From a virus, in IMG/VR virus record IMGVR_UViG_3300009702_000037, positions 1 through 44,423 of that record: DNA of 44,423 bases. The stretch is one strand, 5' to 3'. The translations under genes and the position numbers were made by a program. A model generated the notes under the pieces. That model was given only the letters and a program-made list of their open reading frames with translations, had not been told where the DNA came from and did not search any database. How positions within the stretch are numbered: position 1 is the first letter of the stretch; every line of letters starts with the position of its first letter. This document shows, in pieces, positions 2,617 through 25,713 of this stretch.

Positions 2617-3525
2617 TTAACCATTCTGGTTGTACCCAGTTCGTTTAACAGACGCACGTTCTTCGAGTGCTTCCAGAGTAAACTCTGTAACCCATTGACC
2701 TCGATCTGCGTCGCCGATCTTAGCGAGTTCAGTGAACATTGGTTGATCCAGGTAAGCCAAGCGCCACAAATCTTCACGGAGACCGTAAACTGTGGTTGAA
2801 CCTGCTGAATCACGAACGTCTTTGTGAGCGAAGATCCGATGAGAACCACCTGCTGATTCGTACACCAAGACTTCATTCACAAGTTTGCGCTCGGTAGCGT
2901 CGATATAACGAGTTGAGTTAGCGGCGAAGCCTGCGATCTTCTGTTTGATCGGGAAGGTACAAAGAATCATGTCAAACACCTTGTCGGAGTTAACATTGGT
3001 CCAAACGTCTTTCACCATTGAGTTAAGTTCGTTTTCTGAGAACGAAGTTCCAGAGTTACGAGCTGTCACGTTAGTGGTGATAAAGGCGTCAATACCGTTC
3101 ATTTGTCGCGCAACACCAGAAGCACCTGAAGCTTTAACTGCGTTCAAGATAGCGTACTCCATGTCCATTTTCAAAAGGCGCAAACCTTCTGCTTTTTGGA
3201 AAGCATATGGATCATCCATAGCGGCTACATTAACTTTTCGTTCAGTTCGTGAAATACGAATTGCTCGGTCAATGATTTGGGTTACGTTGTTTTCTCGGGT
3301 TGGTTGTGACAAATCGCTGAATGTTGCATCAGCACCTTCAACAGAAGCCCTAACTGAGGTCGGACGTGACACGTTGTGTTTTGTCCACTCGTGAAGGCTA
3401 CCCTTAGCTGCCCCACTTGGGAACAAGGTCATCAACGGAGTTTCGTCTGGTGAGACGTCACCCATGATGTCCAAAAGGTCTTCTCGTCGAATTGTATCGT
3501 CGTATGTGATTAAACCTACTGCCAT
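2617..3525 (-). CDS. Major capsid protein (SU10/DUF5309-like)
   Basis: A 302-residue protein beginning MAVGLITYDDTIRREDL with a perfect ribosome site (AAAAGGAGGTG) 7-8 bases upstream. The N-terminal pattern (DDTIRREDLLDIMGDVSPDE, residues 9-28), the segment SRTERKVN near residue 92 and the C-terminal EALEERASVKRTG fit the HK97-fold capsid family represented by phage SU10 (DUF5309). Length matches the family (about 300-350). It forms the icosahedral shell. Its gene follows the scaffold-like gene, the usual order. Assignment rests on remembered family features. Confidence 0.85.
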   Translation of the reverse strand: MAVGLITYDDTIRREDLLDIMGDVSPDETPLMTLFPSGAAKGSLHEWTKHNVSRPTSVRASVEGADATFSDLSQPTRENNVTQIIDRAIRISRTERKVNVAAMDDPYAFQKAEGLRLLKMDMEYAILNAVKASGASGVARQMNGIDAFITTNVTARNSGTSFSENELNSMVKDVWTNVNSDKVFDMILCTFPIKQKIAGFAANSTRYIDATERKLVNEVLVYESAGGSHRIFAHKDVRDSAGSTTVYGLREDLWRLAYLDQPMFTELAKIGDADRGQWVTEFTLEALEERASVKRTGYNQNG

Positions 3526-3598
3526 ATTTTATTCACCTCCTTTTATTAGCGCGAGATTTTTCTCAGCGGCTAAGGGCGCGACTCCTCTGCTTGGGTCT

Positions 3599-4606
3599 CT
3601 ACTCTTGAGACCGTGGAGTCCCCGAGTGAGAGATGTTCTGGAGACGTTGAGCTAATGCCCAAATTGATTCGTCTCCCCGACCAGCTCGTGTTTTCCGCAC
3701 TAATTCATCATGTTCGCCAGCACTGAGTTGACTCTGCGCTGATTGGGTGTTGCCTCTGGTCTCTGCCGAAGCCTGCTGTTTTACGTTTTCTGCTTGTTGA
3801 GCCTGTTCTTGGCGCTGTTGCACCTGTTGTTCAGTCTCTTGAGTAGAATTATTTTCAGCCTGCTCTCGGGCTCGAATTGCGTCAACATACTTTTTAGCTT
3901 CTTGCGCTGCTTGTGAGAATGTCAACCGTACACCTCCGTACTTGTCCTTGTTAATCATGGAATCGAGAAGAAACTTCTCTGTCATGTCGATCAACATTGA
4001 GTCTTTCTTTTCGGTGTTGGGATTGAGTTCAGGGAACGCTTTGTAGGCTTCCTGAGTTTCAATTAATTCCCGCTCCCGCTGTTGTGACTCAATATATTCC
4101 TTCATGGTGTTTTCCACGTTGGCTGCACGTTGGTTGGCTGAATCCAAAGCTGCTTTCAGCTTGATTTCGTTGACGTATTTTTGACCGTCTGCGTCCACCT
4201 CGATGAATTGAGTGGGATCTACTTGCTGGGATGTCAAAGCCTGCATCTGTTGTTGTGTGAAATTTTGTTGGTTTGGCTGATACTGAGGGGCTGGAGTCGT
4301 TGCCTGGTTGATACGATCAACCATTTGTTGTGACTGACTCGTCGCCTGCCTGCCAGCAAATTCTTGTTCAAGACGTTGCTTTTCAGCTTCAGCTCGTTGA
4401 TATTTTTCAAACAACTCGCGATTGTGGTTAAGCAGTTTTTCAAACTGTTCACCCGTTCTCGCAGATGGGTTGGCCGCTGCACTGTTTTCACCAGTTTGAG
4501 TGGGCTGTTGCTGTGCATCTGCCTGACTCGTTTGGTCTGTAGTGCTTGATTGGTTTTGCTGACTTACATCAGCATTATTAGATTGTTCTGGCATATACTT
4601 GTTCAC
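3599..4606 (-). CDS. Scaffold-like Gln-rich head protein
   Basis: A 335-residue protein of very low complexity: residues 1-60 are Gln/Ser/Thr rich, followed by a long Glu/Lys/Gln helical region likely to form coiled coil (about residues 55-130 and 180-290). Acidic, helical, poorly conserved proteins placed between portal and capsid genes are usually scaffolding proteins that guide procapsid assembly. Strong ribosome site GAAAGGAGGTG before the ATG. No protease gene is visible in this window, so scaffold removal is not explained here. Function inferred from position and composition. Confidence 0.65.
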   Translation of the reverse strand: MNKYMPEQSNNADVSQQNQSSTTDQTSQADAQQQPTQTGENSAAANPSARTGEQFEKLLNHNRELFEKYQRAEAEKQRLEQEFAGRQATSQSQQMVDRINQATTPAPQYQPNQQNFTQQQMQALTSQQVDPTQFIEVDADGQKYVNEIKLKAALDSANQRAANVENTMKEYIESQQRERELIETQEAYKAFPELNPNTEKKDSMLIDMTEKFLLDSMINKDKYGGVRLTFSQAAQEAKKYVDAIRAREQAENNSTQETEQQVQQRQEQAQQAENVKQQASAETRGNTQSAQSQLSAGEHDELVRKTRAGRGDESIWALAQRLQNISHSGTPRSQE

Positions 4607-4947: not shown

Positions 4948-5259
4948 TTAGATTTTCATAGGCGACTCTGGGCCGTTGCCTTTTCTAATATCCTCAAGCT
5001 CGTGTGCTTGGGCGATTAACTCGTTAATGTCTGTGATAAGTTCTTTGGCTGCCTCTCTGGCATAAAACAAGTTGTATTCTCGGCGCAGGAAGTCGTCGTC
5101 AGTTTCGCACTCTCTGGGATCAATCCAAGTGTGGTACATCCTGTCTTCCAAAAATTGCATCACCACTTTCCACCCCTCAGTGAATACCATCTCTTCTAAG
5201 GCAAAGCCTTTTTGCATGGTTTCTCGTTGTTCTCTGGTTAGTTGGTTATCCTGTGGCAT
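4948..5259 (-). CDS. Hypothetical helical protein after portal (103 aa)
   Basis: Starts MPQDNQLTREQRE and overlaps the portal gene by 14 bases, so translation is likely coupled. Sequence is helical and acidic (FLEDRMYHTWIDPREC, AKELITDINELIAQAHELED). No known domain. Position suggests a head accessory protein. Confidence 0.65.
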   Translation of the reverse strand: MPQDNQLTREQRETMQKGFALEEMVFTEGWKVVMQFLEDRMYHTWIDPRECETDDDFLRREYNLFYAREAAKELITDINELIAQAHELEDIRKGNGPESPMKI

Positions 5260-7282
5260 TTGGATTCATTAGTTGATTAATGGCTGACCCAACATTGGCG
5301 ACGTTGGGAGATTGAGAGTTCGGTGTTATGTTAGGGAGAGCACGATCTAGTTCCCCTGGTGTGTATCCTCCTGGTCCGCGGGTGGCTCTGCCGTCGATCC
5401 CGTCTCCACCACCTTGGGCTTGAGCCATCATGCCCTGCATCTCTTCTTTGCTTATTTGTTCAAAGTATTTTTCAGCGTCCTTGAAGCCCGAGTCTTCCAA
5501 CCACTGGACAAATAGTTCTTTAAACTTAGGTCGAGTACCAGACGATCGCAGCATCTCCAAGACATTTGGGTTAGACATTAGGGCAGTAATCGCAATGCTT
5601 CGCCCCTGTCTTTCTGTTTGTTCTGCACCCATAGCCATCGAGATAACGTCGGCTACAAAGTCAAAGTCTCCTTGTAGATCTTCTTCTTCAACAACTAATT
5701 GTCCAAACCGCGCCTTGTCATCGTACATAAACTTAGGCACCACCTCTGGTTCTTCGTCTGAACCGATGTTGACTGGTTGGAGTGGAGCAGAGAATGAGGT
5801 TGGGTCCATCTCTGGCATTTGGGCAGCAGCCATGGCGGCCTCATGAGATAGGCCTTCTTGGTTGAGACCCAGCTCTTGGAAGTATTTAACCGCGTCGTTC
5901 CCTACCACACGGACAATGTAGTGGTGTCTCTCTGGGTCAGAGAACAACATTACTTGATTCATCCGATGCCAAATTCTCATTTGTCGCTGGATAGCTTCTG
6001 CTAAAAAGTTTTGGTTGAAAGAGTCCCGAGCGTTTTGTTGTGCCGCCAGAGCCTGAACTTCTGTGGCTGTCTTTTCTGGATTAAACCGCCCCGCGTTGGA
6101 GACACCGAGAGAAGTCTCACCCAGTGCAGTCATCATTGAGGCAACCAGTGCTGAGTATGTGTTGTTAAAGTGTGCCGCGGCATTGGCGCTACTTTCGACA
6201 ATTCTGAAATCGGTTTGAGGATTGTTCATCCTCCATCGGGCGTTCTTGCCCCATTTGATGGTGTGGTCTCTAACCCCTGGTGCTAGAGCAATCGGGGTAT
6301 AAAGTTTTTGGTTAATCTCATCCAGGTACTGACAGAGCAAAGCGTTGACACCTTTTTGCAAACTCTTGACTGGCTCAATCTCTGACACCCCGTAAAGGTC
6401 GTCATCAATTGCATAGTACCGCAACATGATGACAGGTATTTCGTTGTTTTTGTATGGGTTCTCAATGTCACGCAGCACCACTCCATAACGTGGAGCAAAG
6501 GTGTACCAGCGATCTCTGCGGTACTCAGTAACTATTTCAATGGTTCTAAATGCTGAGTCTTGCCCAATTGGATCAACAGTTAGGCCAGAGATTTCTCTGT
6601 TGCGAGAAAGCCAGTTGACCCCACGAGTATCTCCACCAGTTGCTTGACCAGAAGTTCTTTGCTTGATTGAGTATTCAAGCTTGTCCAGGTTTTGATAAAT
6701 AGGTTTTTCTCGGACAGCATCATTAACTTTTTTCAACTCATCAAAAGAAACATACTCTCGTACCTGGAACCAGTTACAATCCTCTATGCTAGTGGCCGCG
6801 ATGTCTGGACCACAGTCTCGGTTATTGAGCACCTTCATCTCTGGGCCATCAAACACCACTTTGCCTGTGCCGTCTTTTTCATAACGCCATTTACAGAGAG
6901 CAAAGGCCGCGCCGTACTTTCGAGTGTTAATGTCCATCAGAGACCATTTGCTCATCATCGAACCATGGTGATTGGCACGATCCCATTGGTAACTCAGAAG
7001 TTCATTATTAATATGTGCCTTAAGAACGTCTCCGCCTTCTCGTGGGAGCAGTCGTCCTTTTAGTTTGTTGGAGAATAATCGTGAAGTCTTTTCGACAATG
7101 AAGGTAAAAATTCTTGGATCAAACACCAAAGCGTCGTATGGCCACTTGTTTTCGTCTAGCCAAGATCGGAACAATTCGTCTGCTTCGTCGAACGAAATTG
7201 AACCTACTCTTCCTCGCCCTGTTCGGCGTTTGTCCGTCTCTTCAAATGCTGTCTCGTAATGATCGTGAAGATCCGAGAACAT
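5246..7282 (-). CDS. Portal protein
   Basis: Large protein (693 residues from the upstream ATG at 7327, 678 from the ATG at 7282). The N-terminal segment FDEADELFRSWLDENKWPYDALVFDP and the core residues around VKSLQKGVNALLCQYLDEINQ match the portal family of large-genome phages. The dodecameric ring forms the DNA entry vertex. The 7282 start is preferred because AAGGAAAG lies upstream of it, whereas the ATG at 7327 directly follows a terminator T-run and lacks a ribosome site. A terminator-like leader precedes the gene (see 7332-7384). Confidence 0.85.
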   Translation of the reverse strand: MFSDLHDHYETAFEETDKRRTGRGRVGSISFDEADELFRSWLDENKWPYDALVFDPRIFTFIVEKTSRLFSNKLKGRLLPREGGDVLKAHINNELLSYQWDRANHHGSMMSKWSLMDINTRKYGAAFALCKWRYEKDGTGKVVFDGPEMKVLNNRDCGPDIAATSIEDCNWFQVREYVSFDELKKVNDAVREKPIYQNLDKLEYSIKQRTSGQATGGDTRGVNWLSRNREISGLTVDPIGQDSAFRTIEIVTEYRRDRWYTFAPRYGVVLRDIENPYKNNEIPVIMLRYYAIDDDLYGVSEIEPVKSLQKGVNALLCQYLDEINQKLYTPIALAPGVRDHTIKWGKNARWRMNNPQTDFRIVESSANAAAHFNNTYSALVASMMTALGETSLGVSNAGRFNPEKTATEVQALAAQQNARDSFNQNFLAEAIQRQMRIWHRMNQVMLFSDPERHHYIVRVVGNDAVKYFQELGLNQEGLSHEAAMAAAQMPEMDPTSFSAPLQPVNIGSDEEPEVVPKFMYDDKARFGQLVVEEEDLQGDFDFVADVISMAMGAEQTERQGRSIAITALMSNPNVLEMLRSSGTRPKFKELFVQWLEDSGFKDAEKYFEQISKEEMQGMMAQAQGGGDGIDGRATRGPGGYTPGELDRALPNITPNSQSPNVANVGSAINQLMNPNATG

Positions 7283-7331
7283 TTGTTCTTCTTTCCTTGT
7301 GGTATTTCGGTTGGGTTTGGCAGGCATGATA

Positions 7332-14208: not shown

Positions 14209-17200
14209 TTAAAAATCAAGCATACACGCGCCCCCTAAACAAGCAACTAATTGCGCTGCCTCTGTCTGATCTGTCTCTTCAAACTGTGGCAAAAGGTGCC
14301 ATTTAATATCTGGCTGACCAGATAACATTTTTTGATAAGTTGCCTCGTCAATTTCTTCATATGGCATGAGGTCATACTGGGCATCAGAGTGGGGTAAAAA
14401 TGAAATGCCCCCAATATACTCCTGGTTCTCATACACCAGGTCTATCAAACCTTCTAACTCTTCTGGCTTATATGTCAAAGTAAAGCTTGGGTTATGCTCC
14501 GTCCATTCTGTTTTATTCTTCAACCAAATATTGAACTGATCTTCTGCTGTAAGATCGTTTCTAGTCTTGGTCCCCTTTGGAGACTCCACCACAAAATCTG
14601 CCACAAACATTTCAGCATCGTCGTATGATTTGCCTCGATCAGGAATCAGCTTCACACCAGAAGCTTCCATGACCCATCTGGCAGGGCTGTTTGCGTTAAC
14701 TCGGACTCTCCTAATATAGTAGGGAGCCCATCGGGCATGTATCCCGCTTGAACAATTAAGCAACTGGCTTGAGTTCCCAGACGGCTTGTTACATGTCACA
14801 GCCGCGGCTTGGTTTATGTCTAGTTTTTGGGCGTACTCCTTGTTAACCTCTATCGCATAATCCCTCAGCTCTGTTAGGACACCTTTCTCCATGAGTAGCG
14901 GGCAATCCATGAACCCTGTTATATCTACACCAAGTAACCGCTCCTCGGCATTGTTATCCGCCCAGTCTTGTCGTAATCCTGGGAAGTTGTTCTCCATCGC
15001 CTGGATCGTCCCAAAGATTGTCGCAAGCCGCACTTTTTCTCTGAGTGTTTCAAATGTGTCTTCTGGGCGAGCAACAGCGATTGATAGGTTGCAGAACTGC
15101 ATGGGTCTCAGGTTAATCTCCCCACACTGGCCTGTAGTAATCCCATTAGACAAGCTAAACTGGTGATTAGTCTCAACAGTACAACAATATACTTTTTCAT
15201 CTACTCCGTCAGACGTAACTTTTTTGATCTTATTAAATCTTGGACTAACTTTGTAAATGGTCTGCTTATCTGCAAAACTAACCAGTCGGCTAAAGTTAAT
15301 TTGTGAGGCAAGGATAATACTAGCTGACTGCGAGATGGTTAATCTCCAGCAATCCTTTGCATCATATTCCCCATACCCATCATTAAAGTCCACCTTTTGA
15401 GCCTTTTTCATAATGTTAAAATGAGAATAGACCCCAATCGTTTTTAGCAGTGTTTGGAAATCTCTAAGCCAGTTTTTATGTACGCTCGAAATCTGATACA
15501 AATATCCGTTCTTTGTGTCACTCGCTGTACCGTCAGCATCCATAACTCCTGCTATATACTCTAGCTTTGACTGCTTATCCCATGAAAAAATTTCTACTGG
15601 TAATCTGTTCTTGTAATCAGTAGCCCATTTGGACAGGTCTTCATTTTTAATAGTGATTCTCCTCATCCTCTTCCTATTCTCGCCATACTCTACAAAATCA
15701 ACTCCCAGCACTGCGCTTGTGTTTCTTGCACCGTCTTCTATTTCTTCAGCAGATTGAATTAATCTCTGCTCACAGGCATATTTTGTATCATATAAATAAA
15801 GGATAGGCCGATCTGCGTGTGCGGTCCCGTCACCTGTCAGGAATCCTTTCAAATAAGCCCCCTTGCTTACGACATCGCCGTGAGACTCAGGTGCTTCTGA
15901 TCTTAACAAACGATCTCCCTCTCTAAGCTCATGTGCTTCTTTTTTCCGACCATCCGACAAAACAAATTTATGATATTCAGTGGCCCGAATAATACTTCCA
16001 TCGTATAGTTCTATTTTGAGCATCGGCTCGTTTTCACTCGTTACACGGAAGTTGTCGATGGCAACCCATTGATCCCCGTCCCAGATTTCGACTTCTTTGC
16101 CAACCAAATCTTTTATTTGGAAATGACCCTGCTTAGTCAGCACCATGGTGTCCTCAGAAAGACAAGGATTTGTACCGAAACTATGGGCTTTTCTCCGTTC
16201 TGGTTTGAGAAGATTTGCATTCCTGCGAGAAAAGATACCAGGCTCACCACGCTTAGATTCATCCATCTTCAACATAAATGTCTTCACTTCTTCTTTTGTC
16301 ATCTCCCGATCTGGCCATACAGTTGAATTGTTGGCGTTAAACCGTTGCGGATCTGTCTCGTAGAAGTCTCCATCCTTGCATCCAAGCATTAGCTCGTCAT
16401 CATAATCGAACAATGAAATCATTGCTGTGTTGTGAACTAAATAACCTTCAGCCACAAAAACATGCTGTCCCTCAACGCTCAAGTCATATGTGTGAACATC
16501 CCCTGATTTCTCAATTGATTCTATTTGGACTGGGACAAAATAATCTATCCCTGTTAATTCTGAGTAAGTACTGCTATTCATGCCCCTGTCAGCATTGGTG
16601 CTGTATTTAGTCGCCCACATTTTCCGAGGGAGATCGTTAATAATAAACTCTTGAGGGATTGTGTACCCAGACTGCTTTGCTTTCCTTTCGGGGATTTCCA
16701 GACAACGATGGTCTGCTGTTAACTCTGTAAACCTAACCAGGCTGGCATGGTCTTTAATCGAAACCCTCCATAATTTTTGCCACTCTGGGTTGTCTCTATC
16801 CCTACCCTTTATTTCAGAAATTATCCCCATAGAAGCTAAAACTCTTACGATCTGTCTTGCAAATCCCTCATACACTGTACTCACCACTGTGATCGGTCTG
16901 TCGTTGTGTGCCCCATCGCCATCCATTACCCCAGCAATATAAGCCGCCCTCATTTCAACGGGGGCATTTAAAATCCTGTCATCAATCACAATTGGAGTTT
17001 TCGACTCCTTAAACTCACCAAACCATTTAGCCATTCTTCGCACACCCGTCCTGACCACAAAACAATCTTCTCCTTTAGTTTTTGTAGCTTGAGGTGTAAT
17101 GCCATGACTATTAAACCATGAAATTATTTTATCGTTGGCTGCCTTTTTATTAATATTATTACTAAAAGACACCGCAACCCTTGACTCATCGCCTGGGGCA

Positions 17201-18378
17201 CGATAGATATACCCATTTGCATGGAGCATACCAATCATCCAATATGTATCAGCATCACCAGTTGGTTGCTTAATCTCTGTCCTGACATTATCAGCCTTTC
17301 GATAGTCTTCCAGACGTGGTAGTTCTTGCTGCTCTCCATCTATTGCGTGTGTAATAAACAGCAGCCGATCATCTTCGCCTATGTCTTCAGCGTGTTTGAA
17401 AGTATATTCCCCTTTACCAGAAGATAAGACTGCAATACGATGATCGGGCGTGCAAGAAAATAACATACCAGTTTCCGTAGTAATTGTTATTACCTCCTGA
17501 ACTCCCTGGTCAACAGCCTCAGTTACTTTTTTGTATCCAATGTCTGTCATCACTTCATCACCCTCTACAACATCCTCAATCTTTATCATCCCTTTTTTGG
17601 TATGAACAATAGTTCCCTCTGCCATACACCTGCGAACTCCGCCGCTGATACTCGCATCGCCCACCTTACACATAATGTCATGAGCATCTAGTGTTGTTAG
17701 TTTCTGGCCTTGTCTGGCTAACATTCTTTGTCGTATGAAATCAAGAGTTTCTTGTAAGACTTTCGGCCCTGAAGAGTGCCCGCCTTTTGTTTTAAGCGGA
17801 GTGCCTGCTGGTCTTAATTTAGAATAATCAAACTTGTAGTCCATCCCCTCAAACCATGCTTCTATCCCCAGCCTTAATGCTTCGGCCCATCCATCCATGG
17901 TGTCCTCTACAAAATGAGTTGGGGTGCTGCCGTTTAACCCAACTTGTTTCTTCACGACTGGCAACTTGTTTACGTGCTCGCTTTCAACTGAAAAACCCAC
18001 GCCACAGCCACACATACTAATAATTAAAGCCTCAACCCAAGCGTCAACCGAATCAACTGGCACATAACTACAGTTAAAAATAGTTTGCCCGTGCCTGCGC
18101 GCCGCCTTACCCGCCATGGCTATCATCCTCATGGACGGGGTTGCCTCCATTTTTAATAATCCTTCTCGAAGTTCTTCGTATTCTTTGTCTCCCAGTTTTT
18201 CCTGACTCATCCATTTCAAATGATCTACCACTCGATCTACTGTCTCGACCCATGTTTCTCGTCTACCTTTATCCCAGTTGAAGCGTGAATATTTGTCATA
18301 GAACTGGAATTTCTGGAGTTCCATGGGGAAGTATTTGTCAGAGTCGCTAAAAACACTTAGTGTAACTTCATCATTCAT
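14209..18378 (-). CDS. nrdJ: Adenosylcobalamin-type (class II) ribonucleotide reductase with two inteins
   Basis: A 1389-residue precursor; exteins total about 643 residues, consistent with a monomeric class II RNR (RTPR-like). Extein motifs in order: FNCSYVPVD with the first redox Cys (residue 103), SGGVRR, then after intein 1 TAMISLFD, then FGTNP joined after splicing to CGEINLRP, which contains the thiyl-radical Cys and catalytic Glu, then FCNLSI with the partner Cys, and the C-terminal thiol shuttle CLGGACMLDF. It reduces ribonucleotides to deoxyribonucleotides. No partner R2 or activase gene is seen, which fits class II. Intein 1 interrupts residues 250/651 and intein 2 residues 738/1085. 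Confidence 0.9.
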   Translation of the reverse strand: MNDEVTLSVFSDSDKYFPMELQKFQFYDKYSRFNWDKGRRETWVETVDRVVDHLKWMSQEKLGDKEYEELREGLLKMEATPSMRMIAMAGKAARRHGQTIFNCSYVPVDSVDAWVEALIISMCGCGVGFSVESEHVNKLPVVKKQVGLNGSTPTHFVEDTMDGWAEALRLGIEAWFEGMDYKFDYSKLRPAGTPLKTKGGHSSGPKVLQETLDFIRQRMLARQGQKLTTLDAHDIMCKVGDASISGGVRRCMAEGTIVHTKKGMIKIEDVVEGDEVMTDIGYKKVTEAVDQGVQEVITITTETGMLFSCTPDHRIAVLSSGKGEYTFKHAEDIGEDDRLLFITHAIDGEQQELPRLEDYRKADNVRTEIKQPTGDADTYWMIGMLHANGYIYRAPGDESRVAVSFSNNINKKAANDKIISWFNSHGITPQATKTKGEDCFVVRTGVRRMAKWFGEFKESKTPIVIDDRILNAPVEMRAAYIAGVMDGDGAHNDRPITVVSTVYEGFARQIVRVLASMGIISEIKGRDRDNPEWQKLWRVSIKDHASLVRFTELTADHRCLEIPERKAKQSGYTIPQEFIINDLPRKMWATKYSTNADRGMNSSTYSELTGIDYFVPVQIESIEKSGDVHTYDLSVEGQHVFVAEGYLVHNTAMISLFDYDDELMLGCKDGDFYETDPQRFNANNSTVWPDREMTKEEVKTFMLKMDESKRGEPGIFSRRNANLLKPERRKAHSFGTNPCLSEDTMVLTKQGHFQIKDLVGKEVEIWDGDQWVAIDNFRVTSENEPMLKIELYDGSIIRATEYHKFVLSDGRKKEAHELREGDRLLRSEAPESHGDVVSKGAYLKGFLTGDGTAHADRPILYLYDTKYACEQRLIQSAEEIEDGARNTSAVLGVDFVEYGENRKRMRRITIKNEDLSKWATDYKNRLPVEIFSWDKQSKLEYIAGVMDADGTASDTKNGYLYQISSVHKNWLRDFQTLLKTIGVYSHFNIMKKAQKVDFNDGYGEYDAKDCWRLTISQSASIILASQINFSRLVSFADKQTIYKVSPRFNKIKKVTSDGVDEKVYCCTVETNHQFSLSNGITTGQCGEINLRPMQFCNLSIAVARPEDTFETLREKVRLATIFGTIQAMENNFPGLRQDWADNNAEERLLGVDITGFMDCPLLMEKGVLTELRDYAIEVNKEYAQKLDINQAAAVTCNKPSGNSSQLLNCSSGIHARWAPYYIRRVRVNANSPARWVMEASGVKLIPDRGKSYDDAEMFVADFVVESPKGTKTRNDLTAEDQFNIWLKNKTEWTEHNPSFTLTYKPEELEGLIDLVYENQEYIGGISFLPHSDAQYDLMPYEEIDEATYQKMLSGQPDIKWHLLPQFEETDQTEAAQLVACLGGACMLDF
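15127..16164 (-). mobile_element. Intein 2 in RNR at the catalytic Cys, ending Gly-Gln
   Basis: Residues 739-1084 (346 aa), beginning Cys (CLSEDTMVL) and followed by block B-like ATEYHKFVL. Two LAGLIDADG motifs are intact: YLKGFLTGDG and YIAGVMDADG. The C-terminus is GITTGQ before extein Cys1085, so the usual penultimate His and terminal Asn are replaced by Gly and Gln. Gln-ending inteins are known to splice. The +1 residue is the RNR catalytic Cys, so the enzyme is dead until splicing. Confidence 0.88.
16429..17628 (-). mobile_element. Intein 1 in RNR with LAGLIDADG endonuclease
   Basis: Residues 251-650 of the RNR precursor (400 aa). It starts with Cys (CMAEGTIV, block A), has a block B-like CTPDHRIAV and ends with GYLVHN before extein Thr651, a standard splice junction. 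The centre carries two dodecapeptide motifs, YWMIGMLHANG and YIAGVMDGDG, of a LAGLIDADG homing endonuclease. The second retains its acidic residue; the first has Ala-Asn in place of the usual acidic pair, so cleavage activity may be weakened. Inserted after SGGVRR. Confidence 0.9.
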
Positions 18379-18459
18379 ATTTGGAAGTTGAGATAAAAAT
18401 CTATCTACAACTTACAGCAAAAATACAGCCCGATGCAATATGACATTTTGTTGATTTTT

Positions 18460-18549
18460 TGGCGGAGAAGATAGGGGTCGAACCTACACGCCAATTTCTT
18501 GACACTAGTTTTCAAGACCAGGGCGATGCCAATTACGCTTTACTTCTCC
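18460..18549 (-). tRNA. tRNA-Ser (TGA) with encoded CCA
   Basis: Class II tRNA with acceptor GGAGAAG/CTTCTCC, anticodon stem CTGGT/ACTAG and loop CTTGAAA (TGA), a long variable arm, T-loop TTCGACC, discriminator G and genomic CCA. Span includes the CCA. It is directly followed upstream by an odd tRNA-like RNA. Confidence 0.9.
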
Positions 18550-18553
18550 ATGC

Positions 18554-18674
18554 CTTTTGTGAGAGAAGGGACTCGAACCCTTTTAGCCTATTGGCCATGT
18601 TTGTATATTCCAGTAGTTGCCAAGACAAAGGCAACGCCATGTGCGACTCGCCATCTTCGCCGCTCTCACAAAAG
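18554..18674 (-). ncRNA. tRNA-like RNA with 12-bp closing stem
   Basis: A canonical T-arm (AAGGG TTCGAGT CCCTT) and a D-arm-like GCGA/TCGC loop containing GG sit on a 12-bp closing stem (CTTTTGTGAGAG and its complement) instead of a 7-bp acceptor. The anticodon-like hairpin GTTGCC/GGCAAC has an 8-base loop, and there are extra bases before it and a long variable region, giving about 112 bases where class II tRNAs have about 90. It may be a degenerate class II tRNA or a Y-RNA-like tRNA mimic, like the three RNAs near 24.2-24.7 kb. Confidence 0.55.
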
Positions 18675-19544: not shown

Positions 19545-20111
19545 CTACAGTATCTGTTTCAAATATTTCTCACTCCCTACATAACTTTCTTTGTCTCCGT
19601 TTTTTATGTATTGCCCCACTACATTCGACGCCAGACCTGAAACAAACAGAACAAAACCCCTTGCTCCTTGCATCTGGCAAATGTCAAAACCCTCTTCGTA
19701 ATCTGTGGGTGGCTCGTATATCTCGTCCCAAGCTATCTGCAATGTCCGTTGTGGTGACATGCCAACGTGAAGGGTGTTGACGAGTGAATTATTATGGACA
19801 AGACTGCGAGCGAAATGATTGTCGAAACAGTCAACAATAAGATCCCAGTCGCCTTCCAAAATAGCCTTTGTGTCTTCATCTAACTTTTGATTGATAATAT
19901 CTATTTTTTTACCAAGGTCTTTATAGATATTGTATTGTAGCGCCTCAACCTTAAACAGACCAACCTGATCTCTGCGATAGTATTGAGTGCCCGCCGCAAT
20001 GTTGCGATCTTCAACCCTGTCGTAATCTAGTACGGTAACAGAATTATCCCCCGCCAAGATAGACGCAACCCAACTACCAAGTGCTCCTGCGCCCAAAACT
20101 AAAATCTTCAT
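19545..20111 (-). CDS. ThiF/E1-like adenylating enzyme (188 aa)
   Basis: Rossmann-type ThiF/MoeB/E1 fold: GAGALGS glycine loop at residues 7-13, VLDYDRVEDRNI acidic strand at 27-38, VDCFDNHFAR at 93-102 and a candidate thioester Cys145 in DICQMQGARG. At 188 residues it is a minimal E1 without extra domains. Family members adenylate the C-terminus of a Ubl or sulfur carrier, but no Ubl gene lies in this operon. Its start overlaps a small membrane peptide gene (ATGA). Linked to JAMM and SPFH genes. Substrate unknown. Confidence 0.8.
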   Translation of the reverse strand: MKILVLGAGALGSWVASILAGDNSVTVLDYDRVEDRNIAAGTQYYRRDQVGLFKVEALQYNIYKDLGKKIDIINQKLDEDTKAILEGDWDLIVDCFDNHFARSLVHNNSLVNTLHVGMSPQRTLQIAWDEIYEPPTDYEEGFDICQMQGARGFVLFVSGLASNVVGQYIKNGDKESYVGSEKYLKQIL

Positions 20112-21691: not shown

Positions 21692-22535
21692 ATCCGACAC
21701 CCCCTTCCTCTTGGTATATCTTCGACAAATGAATTGCACTTTGAAGAGTATGCTCTTTGTCATGACCAGAGGCACAAAAGCCCAGGTCTATAATAGACAT
21801 CCGATCATTAATCACACTTTTTATTTGAGTTCCGCCAACCTTCCATGTGACCAAATACCTGCCACCAGGTTCTTTGGTGTAAGAAACCAACTCTCCACCT
21901 GCGTTCTCTATTTGGAGTTTTAGCCTGGTTTTGAAGTCGGCCTTGAACTTCTTGATCCAGTTGTGCTTCTGGTCTTTAGAGAGATTCATTTTTAACAAGT
22001 CTTGGTACGCCCGATAACTAGACCTGTATAACCCTTGGCATAAAAAATAATACCGTAACTCTGGTGTGGCGCCTTTTATGTGGTCGATAGATGTCTCTTC
22101 TTCAAATGCTTGCTTGACCTGCTCCACCACTTTTCTATCTCTTGAGTAGTCAATCCCCGCAAAGTAAAGCCGACCATCCTCCCACAAAACAGTTTTTATA
22201 TGATCCCACGATGTAACATTATCTCCTAAGAGAAACCGTGCGGTATTGCCCCCAGTCTTTTTGCGAAGGTTGTTAAAATTAATCGGCACAAACTCATCTG
22301 AAAGCGCCATGCCTGTCAAAACATCCTTCCCCTCGACCACCTCGTCTATCTCCATTAAACTTGCGGGCCGTAACACCTTAACATCGTTGCCTAGCTCTAC
22401 TAGGTACCAGCCATCATTATTATTTGCTTTTATCAATCTAGTTTTGTAGCGCCCCCAATTATTGGACACAGGTAAAACAACTTGTCTCGTTTCTGATAGC
22501 TTAGATAAAACATCCTGCATTTTAGACAATTCCAT
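21663..22535 (-). CDS. Hypothetical protein between Ro and JAMM genes (290 aa)
   Basis: Starts MELSKMQDVLSKLSETR, overlapping the Ro gene by 14 bases. Contains a beta-rich start (RLIKANNNDGWYLVELGNDVK, split here by type), a helical middle (YRSSYRAYQDLLKMNLSKDQ), and a segment VINDRMSIIDLGFCASGHDK near residues 244-263 with a Cys and His pair. No family recognised. The coupling makes a functional tie to Ro likely. Confidence 0.6.
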   Translation of the reverse strand: MELSKMQDVLSKLSETRQVVLPVSNNWGRYKTRLIKANNNDGWYLVELGNDVKVLRPASLMEIDEVVEGKDVLTGMALSDEFVPINFNNLRKKTGGNTARFLLGDNVTSWDHIKTVLWEDGRLYFAGIDYSRDRKVVEQVKQAFEEETSIDHIKGATPELRYYFLCQGLYRSSYRAYQDLLKMNLSKDQKHNWIKKFKADFKTRLKLQIENAGGELVSYTKEPGGRYLVTWKVGGTQIKSVINDRMSIIDLGFCASGHDKEHTLQSAIHLSKIYQEEGGVGYGGLYITRE

Positions 22536-24162
22536 ACCATTCTGGTAACTCTAGTAGTTTGGTGCTCATAATCTCTTCAATGACCACCTCTGGGCCTTTA
22601 ATGGCCTTCCCCAGGGTTTGTGCAACCAGGGCTGACTCACTCAATCTATCAGGTGTGATAGTCACCACTGGGATACCTGCTAATTCATAAACCTCTTTTA
22701 AATACGTAGACGTGCCCTGCCCACCGTTAACAATTATCCAAAGCATTGCCTTGGGCTTTTTAACATCTGGGTTTTGTTCATGATACTTAACAATCCCTTG
22801 TGGTAACGTGCCATCATAATTGTGTCCTCCGTCTGAAATAAAGATGTCTACCTCTGCCCCAAACTCTCTGGCCTCTTGGTAAAGAGCGAAACAGTCAGTT
22901 GACCCCCCAAGGGCTATGCCATACAGCTTGCTGGCAAACGCGTCTTGAGTAAACTCGGGTTGATTGGTTTTAGGATTTCTTGGGAGCTCCATTCTTTGTC
23001 CACCGACTGAGAAAGTTCCCCATGCTAGGTTTTCTTCTGGATTGTTAATCATCTCGGCTATCTGAGAACCTTGGTCTCTAATCACATGGATGGCCCGCTC
23101 CATACTATAACTAGTGTCCAAATGGATAAATGTTTTGCCGATCTCTTTCATCTGTTCTTTGCGGCTCTCAGAGCGCGCAGTCTTCATAACCTCTTTTACT
23201 GCCTTGGTCGCTGAGTCATTGATTAGCTTGGTTCTGTCTAGGGCGGATTTGGCTCCTCTAATTTTATTCTTATATACTTTTAGGAACTCTTCGTCACCCA
23301 ACAGACCTGCATCTTCAAACACACTTCTCAAAATAACAGCTTGCTCAGCCGTGGCTTGCTCCATCAGTGCATAAGCAACCACTGGAGAGACTCGGTCAAG
23401 TGCGCCAACCACCCCGAGAACTGGCAGTTTGTCATTCATTATTTTTTGAGCTATTTGTTTGTCGTCCAACCCATCAAAGTTAAACGGACTATCTGAGAAC
23501 TCGATCGTCTGTCCTTTCTGGTTCCATCGCAAAATAGCGGCGGCCTCATCACTTGGAGACAGCCTCATCGCTCGATAGATGTTTGTGTATTTTTTAGCAA
23601 GCCCAGCCTTTTTAATACCTCGCAAAATAACCAAATTCTTCTCACGATATCTGACATACTTTTTGACAGCTGTTCTCAGAGTAGTCGGAAAATGTCGTGC
23701 AGCATTCAACTCTCCATCTATTCCGTATTTAAGCCCACCCAGCTCGATCACCCTGCCTACTAAGATCGGGGATAGTTTTTGGATTGCCGCCGCTGACACC
23801 ACTCGGAGATTTGGCTTATAGAAATCAGACTCTGGTGAAAACTTTTCCCCGTTAGCTGACGACAGTGAGTTCAAATAAACCATCAATACCTGTAGGTCAC
23901 GAGGCACACTATCTCCCTGTTTAATTAACCAAGAAGTAAAGTGAGCTAAGAAGTATGGATCTTTTTCTGTTAATGGATAAAACTGCTCAATCAACTCAAG
24001 TGCTTTGTCTTTGTTTAACCCTTTGCCTACCACCTTGCCCTCTTCGTCACGGAGTGTCCCCCACATGTGCTTAACCCCTTCAAGCACTGCTTGGTATGCC
24101 TCAAGACGATCAGAGTTTTGCAAATAAGGTAGGTTTGGATTTTCCATTTTTATCATTTCCAT
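22522..24162 (-). CDS. rsr: Ro60/TROVE-domain RNA-binding protein (Rsr-like)
   Basis: A 546-residue Ro protein: helical HEAT-like TROVE ring (about residues 15-335, with VPRDLQVLMVYLNSL and LGGLKYGIDGELNAARHFPT) followed by a von Willebrand A domain whose metal site DTSYS (349-353) is intact, then FISDGGHN. Ro binds misfolded ncRNAs through its ring and Y RNAs on its outer surface, and in bacteria can deliver RNA to PNPase. Start at 24162 (MEMIKM) or 24147 (MENPNL). Three Y-RNA-like genes end 8 bases upstream, and the JAMM/SPFH/ThiF genes follow in the same operon. Confidence 0.9.
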   Translation of the reverse strand: MEMIKMENPNLPYLQNSDRLEAYQAVLEGVKHMWGTLRDEEGKVVGKGLNKDKALELIEQFYPLTEKDPYFLAHFTSWLIKQGDSVPRDLQVLMVYLNSLSSANGEKFSPESDFYKPNLRVVSAAAIQKLSPILVGRVIELGGLKYGIDGELNAARHFPTTLRTAVKKYVRYREKNLVILRGIKKAGLAKKYTNIYRAMRLSPSDEAAAILRWNQKGQTIEFSDSPFNFDGLDDKQIAQKIMNDKLPVLGVVGALDRVSPVVAYALMEQATAEQAVILRSVFEDAGLLGDEEFLKVYKNKIRGAKSALDRTKLINDSATKAVKEVMKTARSESRKEQMKEIGKTFIHLDTSYSMERAIHVIRDQGSQIAEMINNPEENLAWGTFSVGGQRMELPRNPKTNQPEFTQDAFASKLYGIALGGSTDCFALYQEAREFGAEVDIFISDGGHNYDGTLPQGIVKYHEQNPDVKKPKAMLWIIVNGGQGTSTYLKEVYELAGIPVVTITPDRLSESALVAQTLGKAIKGPEVVIEEIMSTKLLELPEWYGIV

Positions 24163-24169
24163 ATAACCC

Positions 24170-24326
24170 TGGCCATTTTTCTATTTCATCTGAGTGAGTG
24201 CTGCTTGATGATGAAAAACATAACTGGAATCGAACCAGCTACTCTGAGATTAAATGTCTCGTGCTCTACCAAATGAGCTATATGCTTGTTAGCAAACACC
24301 TGAGAGATGAAATAGAAAAATGGCCA
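24170..24326 (-). ncRNA. Y-RNA-like RNA 1 (tRNA mimic on a 22-bp stem)
   Basis: Perfect 22-bp inverted repeat (24305-24326 with 24170-24191) encloses a full tRNA cloverleaf: acceptor AAGCATA/TATGTTT, D-arm GCTC/GAGC with GG, anticodon stem around CATTTAA and T-arm GCTGG TTCGATT CCAGT. Position 33 is A rather than the universal U, so it should not decode. It contains the box TGCTAACAAGC and ends 8 bases before the Ro ATG. This is the architecture of bacterial YrlA-type Y RNAs. Confidence 0.82.
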
Positions 24327-24500
24327 GTGCTTTTATCCCCACCCCACTTGAGTGAATAATGCAGTTGATAGCACTTCCCCCGTACTTGGGGGGAAGGGGG
24401 GAATTGAACCCCCATTCTTTATCTCCAAAGGATAATGCTGAACCAATCAGCGAGCTTGTTAGCATGTATCTTATAAGTGAGCCAGGTATAAAAACACTGG
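24324..24500 (-). ncRNA. Y-RNA-like RNA 2 (tRNA mimic on a 13-bp stem)
   Basis: CCAGTGTTTTTAT pairs with ATAAAAGCACTGG (13 bp, one G-U), then CACTT/AAGTG after an internal loop. The tRNA-like part has D-arm GCTG ATTGGTT CAGC, anticodon arm TTATC CTTTGGA GATAA and T-arm GGGGG TTCAATT CCCCC, but no pairing acceptor stem. Instead TTCCCCC pairs with GGGGGAA in a 7-bp hairpin. Box TGCTAACAAGC is present. Confidence 0.8.
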
Positions 24501-24502
24501 GT

Positions 24503-24691
24503 TAATGGATTGATGTCTTTGCTGTCTAAGTGAGAACTGCTTTATTTGCGATTACATCACGTCTCCTAGTTGTGGAGACGGAAGGACTCGAACCTTCAAT
24601 GAGCCGAAGCTCGCTAGTTTTTGAAGACTAGTATGTTTACCTTATGCTTGTTAGCAAGATCCTTCGAGACAACAAAGGCAACAATCCATTA
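24503..24691 (-). ncRNA. Y-RNA-like RNA 3 (class II tRNA mimic on a 25-bp stem)
   Basis: Arms 24667-24691 and 24503-24527 pair over 25 positions with one mismatch and two G-U pairs. The centre has an anticodon-like arm CTAGT CTTCAAAA ACTAG with an 8-base loop, a variable arm GAGC TTCG GCTC, a T-arm GAAGG TTCGAGT CCTTC, and a hairpin CGTCTCC/GGAGACG where the 3' acceptor strand would be. Box TGCTAACAAGC is present. First RNA after the promoter at 24712. Confidence 0.8.
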
Positions 24692-24707: not shown

Positions 24708-24914
24708 CTAAATTATACCAGCTGTCGATTTTGGGAACACACAAATATCCCCATTCTCTTCGTGCTGGATAACAAACCCAAACAGGTCTTTCCCGTCTAG
24801 CTCTAGTTCTAGCGCAGAAAATATCTCATCATCACTTGATGTTTGGGTAACATCGAGCGATTCCAAGTCCCAGCGATGTGGACGTGATTCAAGAATTAAA
24901 GTTAATTCAGCCAT
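24708..24914 (-). CDS. Hypothetical protein (68 aa)
   Basis: Start set at 24914 (MAELTLILESRPHRW) because the upstream in-frame Met lies inside the promoter. Leaderless: 6 bases from -10 to ATG. Small beta-rich protein with FSALELELDGKDLFGFVIQH; no family recognised. Its stop overlaps the Y-RNA promoter. Confidence 0.65.
   Translation of the reverse strand: MAELTLILESRPHRWDLESLDVTQTSSDDEIFSALELELDGKDLFGFVIQHEENGDICVFPKSTAGII
24712..24720 (-). promoter_or_regulatory. Extended -10 promoter for the Y-RNA-like array
   Basis: Minus-strand TGGTATAAT about 20 bases upstream of the first closing stem, within the last codons of the upstream gene. It would drive RNA 3, 2, 1 and the Ro operon. No convincing -35 is seen. 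Confidence 0.6.
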
Positions 24915-25488: not shown

Positions 25489-25713
25489 TCACACGGCCTC
25501 TTCAAATACCTCAACACATAAAACATTTTCATCGTTAATCATTATTAGTCTCCCGTCAACCGTCCTGAACTTTGTAAACTGTCCTTGCTTGATGCTTTTT
25601 GACAAAACTCCTGTAAAGGTTTTCTTTACACCGTTAACAAATGTAATAATCTGCGTGACAGAGTCGCCTTGCTCACCTGCTGAAGATTTTAAATCAGTGG
25701 CCGACTCTTTCAT
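25489..25713 (-). CDS. Hypothetical protein (74 aa)
   Basis: Starts MKESATDLKSSAGEQGD; the C-terminal half (TKFRTVDGRLIMINDENVLC) is beta-rich. Follows the 105-residue gene by 10 bases. No family recognised. Confidence 0.55.
   Translation of the reverse strand: MKESATDLKSSAGEQGDSVTQIITFVNGVKKTFTGVLSKSIKQGQFTKFRTVDGRLIMINDENVLCVEVFEEAV

What the first reader, a model, noticed from the sequence alone, without database searches (positions are those of the whole stretch)
24170..24691. Three tandem Y-RNA-like tRNA mimics directly upstream of a phage Ro60 gene
Seen: three consecutive closed stems (22 bp perfect, 13 bp, 25 bp) each enclose tRNA-like arms with intact T-loops. Decoding features are broken: A33 in RNA 1, no acceptor pairing in RNA 2, an 8-base anticodon loop in RNA 3. 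The Ro/TROVE gene starts 8 bases later. Known: bacterial Ro proteins bind YrlA-type Y RNAs that have a long terminal stem and a tRNA-like module, and some phages encode Ro. Inference: the phage encodes a complete Ro RNP with three different tRNA-like Y RNAs, which may present different tRNA-processing or degradation targets to Ro.
Basis: partly seen in the sequence, partly recalled or inferred. Interest (0 to 1): 0.95.

Follow-up and report, generated by a model that had tools for sequence, protein, structure and literature searches.

The report
Phage Ro RNAs made from tRNAs
A phage carries, right next to a distant relative of the human Ro60 RNA-quality-control protein, three RNAs in which one conserved Ro-docking stem is spliced onto tRNAs that have been cut open at three different places; the same design recurs in dozens of giant phages packed with tRNA genes, and it suggests where bacterial Y RNAs came from.

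Summary
Minus strand 24169-24691 encodes three abutting RNAs, 6 nt upstream of a Ro-like gene (22522-24162). The protein gives no sequence match to Pfam TROVE or the PDB. Its AlphaFold model matches Ro/TROVE structures first (E 1e-7 to 1e-5), and profile comparison links it to bacterial TROVE proteins (E 1.5e-9). Relatives in 32 viral contigs and the GenBank phage Rctr197k lie mostly inside tRNA arrays. RNAs of the same design recur beside them: a closing stem, a constant internal loop ending CUY, an upper stem and a (U)ACAAGC entry into a tRNA. Covariation is strong (27 of 31 pairs). A covariance model built without the window finds RNA1 at E 7e-17 and RNA2 at 2e-8.

The stem enters at the acceptor end (RNA1), between position 8/9 and the D stem (RNA2) and in the D loop (RNA3). 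Anticodon loops are decayed compared with neighbouring tRNAs. Most likely these are Y RNAs: Ro holds the stem, and the tRNA-shaped head recruits tRNA-handling enzymes. Binding and function are untested. They score below Rfam YrlA: a new variant, not YrlA members.

The parts
22522..24162 (-). Ro60-like protein, 546 aa (P0001): helical (HEAT-like) part about residues 16-338, then a vWA domain with MIDAS residues D349, S351, S353 and T422
   Evidence: AlphaFold pLDDT 82.8; Foldseek PDB top 8 all Ro/TROVE; hhalign to TROVE Prob 96.3, E 1.5e-9; no Pfam TROVE match
24169..24327 (-). RNA1: closing stem, internal loop and upper stem around a tRNA-Lys(UUU)-like cloverleaf with A33, in direct order (D, anticodon, T)
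   Evidence: independent covariance model 78.2 bits, E 7.2e-17; tRNA part 84-86% identical over 57 nt to tRNA-Lys of Aeromonas phages
24305..24327 (-). RNA1 closing stem, 5' arm (pairs with 24169-24191)
   Evidence: Sequence; folds
24169..24191 (-). RNA1 closing stem, 3' arm, preceded by internal-loop strand CACUCACUC
   Evidence: Sequence
24284..24293 (-). Conserved GCUAACAAGC entry motif of RNA1
24215..24287 (-). tRNA-Lys-like cloverleaf inside RNA1 (acceptor 6 of 7 pairs, A33)
   Evidence: ARAGORN; Rfam RF00005 52.5 bits
24324..24500 (-). RNA2: Ro-type stem fused to a circularly permuted tRNA-Gln(UUG); stem inserted between position 8/9 and the D stem; order D, anticodon, T, acceptor 3', loop, acceptor 5'
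   Evidence: Model R1 43.5 bits full length, E 1.7e-8; called as tRNA-Gln after rotation, 0 of 20 shuffles; fold z -5.96
24454..24463 (-). Conserved GCUAACAAGC entry motif of RNA2
24374..24396 (-). RNA2 acceptor stem as a hairpin: CUUCCCC (24390-24396) pairs with GGGGAAG (24374-24380)
   Evidence: Sequence; fold
24503..24691 (-). RNA3: Ro-type stem inserted in the D loop of a circularly permuted class-II tRNA with an 8-nt anticodon loop and a GAGC/GCUC variable arm
   Evidence: Called as tRNA (8-nt loop) after rotation, 0 of 20 shuffles; fold z -6.94; module scan score 16
24646..24655 (-). Conserved GCUAACAAGC entry motif of RNA3
24560..24580 (-). RNA3 acceptor stem as a hairpin: CGUCUCC (24574-24580), loop ACAACUA, GGAGACG (24560-24566)
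   Evidence: Sequence; fold
24633..24636 (-). RNA3 D stem 3' strand ACAU (pairs with AUGU at 24554-24557), giving a D loop that holds the Ro-type stem
   Evidence: Sequence; inference supported

Best explanation
The locus encodes a phage Ro ribonucleoprotein. One protein with the Ro fold is made together with three Y RNAs. In each, a constant stem (closing stem, internal loop ending CUY on its 3' strand, upper stem, about 13-14 nt to UAACAAGC) is the docking site for Ro. The other end is a tRNA body, circularly permuted in RNA2 and RNA3. The most likely action follows the known bacterial Ro-YrlA RNP: Ro holds the stem, and the tRNA-shaped head is recognised as a tRNA by tRNA-modifying or tRNA-processing enzymes or an exonuclease, so that Ro is tethered to that enzyme and acts on structured or damaged RNA, presumably including the phage's own tRNAs. 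Shown here: the Ro fold, the RNA anatomy, the covariation, recurrence beside the same protein family, the tRNA-array context and the decay of decoding features. Inferred: that Ro binds the stem, that the RNAs are transcribed and stable, what the head recruits, and the benefit to the phage.
For: Ro fold: Foldseek top hits are all Ro/TROVE for the window protein and for a distant family member; hhalign E 1.5e-9 to bacterial TROVE; MIDAS residues invariant. RNA: constant module and spacing, 22 hits upstream of the Ro-like genes against a mean of about 0.85 (maximum 3) in shuffles; 42 hits on the tRNA strand against 4 on the other at score 13 or more; 2 in 142.6 kb of control contigs. Covariation 27/31 and 20/27 pairs, 0 of 500 shuffles, with slid controls at 30-48% paired cells. 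The window was found by a model built without it. Permutation: 11 inserts in the relatives become tRNAs only after rotation, 0 of 141 shuffled inserts do; RNA2 and RNA3 likewise. Linkage: tRNAs in 33 of 35 loci, about 98% on the Ro-like gene's strand. Decoding decay: 20 of 30 chimeras against at most 30 of 368 plain tRNAs. Model: YrlA's stem holds Ro and its tRNA-like domain binds PNPase and is modified by tRNA enzymes (PMC8394870).
Against: No expression or binding data. Closing and upper stems were scan criteria, so their covariation is partly selected; the acceptor helix in the permuted set was not selected and covaries at 6 of 7 pairs. Foldseek TM-scores are moderate (0.42-0.57). hhalign aligns only the C-terminal half of the helical part plus the vWA domain. 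No PNPase, RtcB or other partner gene was recognised beside the Ro-like gene in the window, and RtcB occurs in only 7 of 23 records. About a third of the loci fetched show no chimera in the stretch held.
Confidence: 0.66

Rival explanations
1. Pre-tRNAs: the stems are processing devices. Ro and RNA-processing or ligating enzymes remove the stem (and ligate permuted halves) to give working tRNAs, as with permuted tRNA genes.
For: Some direct chimeras hold a 7-bp acceptor and a normal anticodon loop (L018 Val, L053 Asn). Several permuted ones have ACCA at the acceptor junction (L029, L044, L047). Variable-loop forms keep tRNA ends (L018, L022, L021). RtcB in 7 of 23 records.
Against: Two thirds of the chimeras have a defect that plain tRNAs of the same loci rarely show: non-U33, 6- or 8-nt anticodon loop, or A34. 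In the window RNA1 has A33, RNA3 has an 8-nt loop, and none has an encoded CCA. Most records show no RtcB.
Confidence: 0.15
2. Decoys: the RNAs present tRNA anticodon arms, protected by Ro, to soak up host tRNA-cutting defence nucleases.
For: Phage tRNAs do counter tRNA-targeting defences (PMC10264068, PMC11555353; titles and abstracts). Most chimeras here keep an anticodon arm, which the YrlA consensus lacks. They lie in phages with large tRNA sets.
Against: Anticodon loops are the least conserved part, the opposite of what an anticodon-nuclease decoy needs. Mini forms with no tRNA at all exist beside the same genes. No defence-related gene was recognised among the genes tested nearby.
Confidence: 0.15
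3. Cis-acting leader: the RNAs, RNA1 above all, sit in the 5' leader of the Ro-like mRNA, and Ro binding to them controls its own synthesis.
For: RNA1 ends 6 nt before the start codon and its 3' arm occupies the place of the ribosome-binding site.
Against: In relatives the RNAs lie up to several kb away, upstream or downstream of the gene, so a leader role cannot be their general function. It could be an extra role here.
Confidence: 0.1
4. Ordinary tRNA relics with accidental flanking stems beside an unrelated vWA protein.
For: Pfam finds no TROVE domain, and the sequence match to Ro is invisible to single-sequence searches.
Against: Covariation, recurrence, strand bias, control counts and fold matches.
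Confidence: 0.02

Closest known systems
Bacterial YrlA Y RNAs with Rsr/Ro60 (Rfam RF02553; Salmonella and Deinococcus Ro RNPs)
   Same: Long terminal stem with an internal loop of similar make-up (YrlA consensus 3' strand AaAcUuG); tRNA-like head; gene next to a Ro-fold protein; the permuted forms in relatives share YrlA's order T arm, acceptor, D arm.
   Different: Below the Rfam threshold; most keep the anticodon arm and acceptor; several insertion points, including direct-order tRNAs inside the stem (RNA1) and stems inside otherwise complete tRNAs; several copies per locus; the protein is not detected by Pfam TROVE.
Canonical phage TROVE proteins ('Ro-like RNA binding protein' of mycobacteriophages and Streptomyces phages; Ro60 of Thermus phage phiLo, PDB 9l5y)
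   Same: Same fold; phage-encoded; the mycobacteriophage example also has tRNA genes nearby. 347 GenBank phage records match a canonical TROVE protein.
   Different: The window family is not found from GenBank phages by tblastn. The chimera models R1 and R2 give only partial tRNA-core matches near the two canonical phage Ro genes tested.
Circularly permuted tRNA genes (for example Cyanidioschyzon; from my own knowledge)
   Same: The 3' half precedes the 5' half of a tRNA in RNA2, RNA3 and the permuted relatives.
   Different: The junction is a conserved Ro-type stem rather than a splicing motif, and decoding features are decayed.
Animal Y RNAs (lower-stem Ro60 site)
   Same: A helix interrupted by bulges or an internal loop, with 3' strand CACUUG-like in L021 and L022; resemblance recalled from memory, not tested. 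Site described in PMC4726728.
   Different: No Rfam Y_RNA match in any stretch searched; tRNA heads are absent from animal Y RNAs (own knowledge).

Membership tests
Ro60/TROVE proteins | Match to Pfam TROVE (PF05731) | tested here: not met
   No match for the window protein or for any of the 32 family members scanned, nor in the window record
Ro60/TROVE proteins | Ro fold: helical repeat part plus vWA domain | tested here: met
   Top 8 PDB matches are all Ro/TROVE; same for a second family member
Ro60/TROVE proteins | Homology over helical part and vWA domain by profile | tested here: met
   hhalign Prob 96.3, E 1.5e-9, 289 columns; the N-terminal part is not aligned
Ro60/TROVE proteins | MIDAS residues DxSxS...T | tested here: met
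   D349, S351, S353 and T422 invariant in 31 sequences
Ro60/TROVE proteins | Binds Y RNA | not testable with these tools
   No binding data
YrlA Y RNAs (RF02553) | Score at or above the Rfam gathering threshold | tested here: not met
   No YrlA match in the window at gathering or up to E 5 at the locus; sub-threshold core matches in relatives
YrlA Y RNAs (RF02553) | Long terminal stem with internal loop | tested here: met
YrlA Y RNAs (RF02553) | tRNA-like head with T arm before D arm and no anticodon arm | tested here: not met
   RNA1 is in direct order; RNA2 and RNA3 are permuted at other points; all three keep an anticodon arm
YrlA Y RNAs (RF02553) | Gene beside a Ro gene | tested here: met
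   6 nt upstream of the Ro-like gene
Functional tRNAs | 7-nt anticodon loop with U33 | tested here: not met
   RNA1 A33, RNA3 8-nt loop; RNA2 meets it
Functional tRNAs | Free acceptor end with CCA | tested here: not met
   No encoded CCA; in RNA2 and RNA3 the acceptor strands are joined by a short loop

The most novel reading that the evidence does not exclude
The Ro-docking stem is a portable module that phages have placed at several positions of circularised tRNAs (acceptor end, position 8/9, D loop, variable loop, and in Myxococcota between D and anticodon arms). These RNAs are living intermediates that show how YrlA-type Y RNAs arose from tRNAs by circular permutation, and the phage Ro RNP is a machine dedicated to tRNA maintenance in tRNA-array phages.
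Probability: 0.38. Interest if true: 0.92.

Novelty: new variant of a known kind. Interest (0 to 1): 0.82.

Why it matters
Bacterial Y RNAs are odd tRNA mimics whose origin and head function are unsettled. Here one protein family and one RNA module come with tRNAs opened at different points, some complete and some eroded. That makes the tRNA origin of Y RNAs directly testable and gives many natural variants for finding what Ro recognises and what the tRNA head recruits. It also gives a function-related marker for giant phages whose large tRNA sets are still poorly explained, and it adds a Ro branch that standard annotation misses.

Tried and rejected
Single-sequence searches (Pfam, PDB phmmer, tblastn in GenBank phages, first viral scan) found no relative of the window protein; a DNA pattern built from the RNAs did. 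Most hits of that pattern (L002-L006, L008-L014) showed no relative of the protein by tblastn; those sampled showed no Ro-like ORF, and L010 remains unexplained. A tRNA decoder role and an anticodon-nuclease decoy role were weighed and lowered by the anticodon-loop statistics. RtcB as an obligate partner was not supported. PADLOC gave no defence link. Rfam YrlA hits inside tRNA arrays are mostly a T arm of one tRNA followed by the D arm of the next. Model R2 matches window RNA3 only weakly (32 bits), so RNA3 rests on the rotation test, the fold score and the module scan. The literature library held no report of such permuted tRNA-Y RNA chimeras, but the key Y RNA papers are not held there, so prior mention cannot be excluded.

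Full report
1. What is there. The window is a 44,423-base virus record. On the minus strand, three RNAs abut between a small ORF (ending at 24708) and a 546-codon ORF starting at 24162. RNA1 (24169-24327), RNA2 (24324-24500) and RNA3 (24503-24691) each fold into a long closed stem around tRNA arms. RNA2 and RNA3 fold far better than shuffles (z -6.0 and -6.9), and a perfect 22-bp arm pair as in RNA1 is expected about 1e-8 times in such a stretch. All three carry GCUAACAAGC at the same place; with one mismatch allowed there are no other sites in the window.

2. The protein. Pfam, NCBIfam, PDB phmmer and tblastn in GenBank phages find nothing convincing; PHROG 850 (RNA-binding protein) matches weakly (E 0.009). 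A DNA pattern from the RNAs found a 132.8-kb phage (L007/L018) with tandem RNAs of the same kind upstream of a homologue. GenBank phage Rctr197k carries another, 54.6% identical to the L007 protein. An alignment of the three then recovered 32 viral loci, most on contigs of 40-600 kb, and four loci on MAG contigs labelled Deltaproteobacteria, Kofleriaceae or Polyangia. AlphaFold2 on 31 sequences gave a model with mean pLDDT 82.8. Foldseek against the PDB places eight Ro/TROVE entries first (E 1e-7 to 1e-5), ahead of all isolated vWA domains. A second member from another branch does the same. hhalign links the family to canonical TROVE proteins of Myxococcota (Prob 96.3, E 1.5e-9). MIDAS residues are invariant. 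So it is a Ro-fold protein of a branch that Pfam TROVE misses.

3. Context of the family. 33 of 35 loci have tRNA genes within the stretch held, about 98% on the strand of the Ro-like gene, often 10-30 of them; in Rctr197k the gene directly follows a long tRNA array.

4. The RNA module. Reading the RNAs side by side gives one anatomy: closing stem; an internal loop whose 3' strand ends in CUY just before the closing stem; an upper stem; 12-15 nt from closing stem to ACAAGC; then the insert. A scan for these features gives 22 hits in the 2.5 kb upstream of the Ro-like genes against a mean of about 0.85 (maximum 3) in 20 shuffles. Over whole loci it gives 42 on the tRNA strand and 4 on the other at score 13 or more, and 2 in 142.6 kb of contigs without this gene family. 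In the window, hits of score 11 or more lie only at this locus. The inserts are of four kinds: a tRNA in direct order (D, anticodon, T); a permuted tRNA (T, acceptor 3', loop, acceptor 5', D, anticodon); a tRNA with normal ends that holds the module, itself reversed into a hairpin, in its variable loop; and mini forms without a tRNA.

5. Evidence that this is selected structure. In 17 direct chimeras 27 of 31 pairs have changes on both sides and 95.4% of cells pair (slid controls 33-45%; 0 of 500 shuffles). In 10 permuted chimeras the figures are 20 of 27 and 92.2%. Closing and upper stems were scan criteria, so their support is partly selected; the acceptor helix of the permuted set was not, and 6 of its 7 pairs covary. 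A covariance model from 16 direct chimeras, without the window, finds RNA1 at 78.2 bits (E 7e-17) and RNA2 at 43.5 bits full length (E 2e-8). In the family loci chimeras mostly score above 79 bits and plain tRNAs at most about 54; RNA2's bit score alone therefore falls in the range of plain tRNAs, and it is the full-length alignment including both stem strands that sets it apart. Rctr197k carries an unannotated one at record position about 175,215-175,343 (85.8 bits).

6. The window RNAs as permuted tRNAs. RNA1 is a tRNA-Lys(UUU) with A33; its body is 84-86% identical over 57 nt to tRNA-Lys genes of Aeromonas phages. RNA2 and RNA3 look broken only when read in order. Joined at the acceptor loop, RNA2 is called tRNA-Gln(UUG) and RNA3 a class-II tRNA with an 8-nt anticodon loop; shuffled versions are never called (0 of 20 each). 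In RNA3 the D stem (AUGU/ACAU) flanks the Ro-type stem, so the stem sits in the D loop. In the relatives, 11 inserts become tRNAs only after rotation and 0 of 141 shuffled inserts do. The three window RNAs are thus three different openings of a tRNA onto one stem.

7. Decoding is not what is kept. Among 30 chimeras called as tRNAs, 9 lack U33, 7 have 6- or 8-nt anticodon loops and 8 of the 23 others have A34; among 368 plain tRNAs of the same loci the numbers are 17, 1 and 12 (Fisher p 3e-5, 5e-8, 3e-6). The chimeras are not fully independent of each other, so these p values are optimistic. The T arm, D arm and acceptor are kept. This favours a role in which tRNA shape matters, as in YrlA, over decoding or anticodon decoys.

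8. Relation to known systems. Bacterial YrlA has a basal stem that holds Rsr/Ro60 and a tRNA-like domain that binds PNPase and is modified by DusA and TruB (PMC8394870). The Rfam YrlA consensus shows the T arm before the D arm and a 3' internal-loop strand AaAcUuG, so YrlA has the same topology as the permuted chimeras minus the anticodon arm; model R2 indeed matches the T-acceptor-D core beside canonical TROVE genes. Canonical TROVE loci in Myxococcota hold either YrlA (L069, 70.6 bits, above threshold) or tRNAs with a hairpin inserted between D and anticodon arms (L060, L061 three times, L062, L066). Phage TROVE proteins are known (347 GenBank records; jumbo phages, PMC7824862; PDB 9l5y), and phages with YrlA have been mentioned (PMC7765460). 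The window RNAs do not reach YrlA's threshold and break its arm order, so I do not file them as YrlA; they most likely work like it.

9. Verdict. Anatomy and recurrence: about 0.95. Ro fold of the protein: about 0.95. Ro binds these stems: about 0.8 (inference). Tethering of a tRNA-handling enzyme as the main action: about 0.5 (inference). New variant of a known kind. The literature library lacks the main Y RNA papers, so an earlier description of some forms cannot be excluded.

Noticed in passing
KX853510.1 (Rctr197k) about 175215-175343 and 175492-175633; L020:25216-25344 and 25493-25634, minus: Unannotated direct (85.8 bits) and permuted (64.6 bits) stem-tRNA chimeras in a GenBank phage record, about 9 kb from its Ro-like gene.
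   Followed up: partly
L060:396-521, L061:3267-3391, 3523-3647, 3778-3902, L062:2302-2423, L066:338-470 (all minus): Beside canonical TROVE genes in Myxococcota genomes: tRNAs with a Y-like hairpin (about 40-50 nt) inserted between D and anticodon arms, missed by ARAGORN; three in tandem in L061.
   Followed up: partly
L018:4593-4723 and 5583-5723; L022:1572-1705; L021:4871-5006; L026 about 5171-5307: tRNAs with closed acceptor stems whose variable loop holds the Ro-type module as a hairpin, the reversed form of the same element.
   Followed up: partly
L018:4728-4824; L022:1469-1560, 1707-1813, 2114-2193: Mini forms: the same stem module with no tRNA arms at all.
   Followed up: no
window 18440-18640, minus: A tRNA-Ser(UGA)-like sequence ending GCCA that ARAGORN did not call, preceded by an orphan T arm; weak permuted-model hit (21.8 bits).
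   Followed up: no
window 14209-18378, minus: Ribonucleotide reductase with an intein and a LAGLIDADG homing-endonuclease domain.
   Followed up: no
window 2617-3525 and 5246-7327, minus: SU10-type major capsid and portal-like proteins, giving the phage's structural affiliation.
   Followed up: no
window 19545-20111 and L019:16799-17422: ThiF-like genes near the Ro-like locus in both the window and Rctr197k.
   Followed up: no
L043 protein (L043:5119-7020), residues 33-97: Longer family members carry an N-terminal beta-strand domain that the window protein lacks; function unknown.
   Followed up: partly
L034:11649-11741; L043:11865-12243: A bacterial SRP RNA and a tmRNA gene inside the phage tRNA arrays beside the Ro-like gene.
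   Followed up: no
L010:876-2703: A 1.8-kb stretch of a 51-kb viral contig with no ORF of 100 aa or more, and GCTAACAAGC 5' of a T-loop-like sequence; no Ro-like gene in the part held.
   Followed up: no
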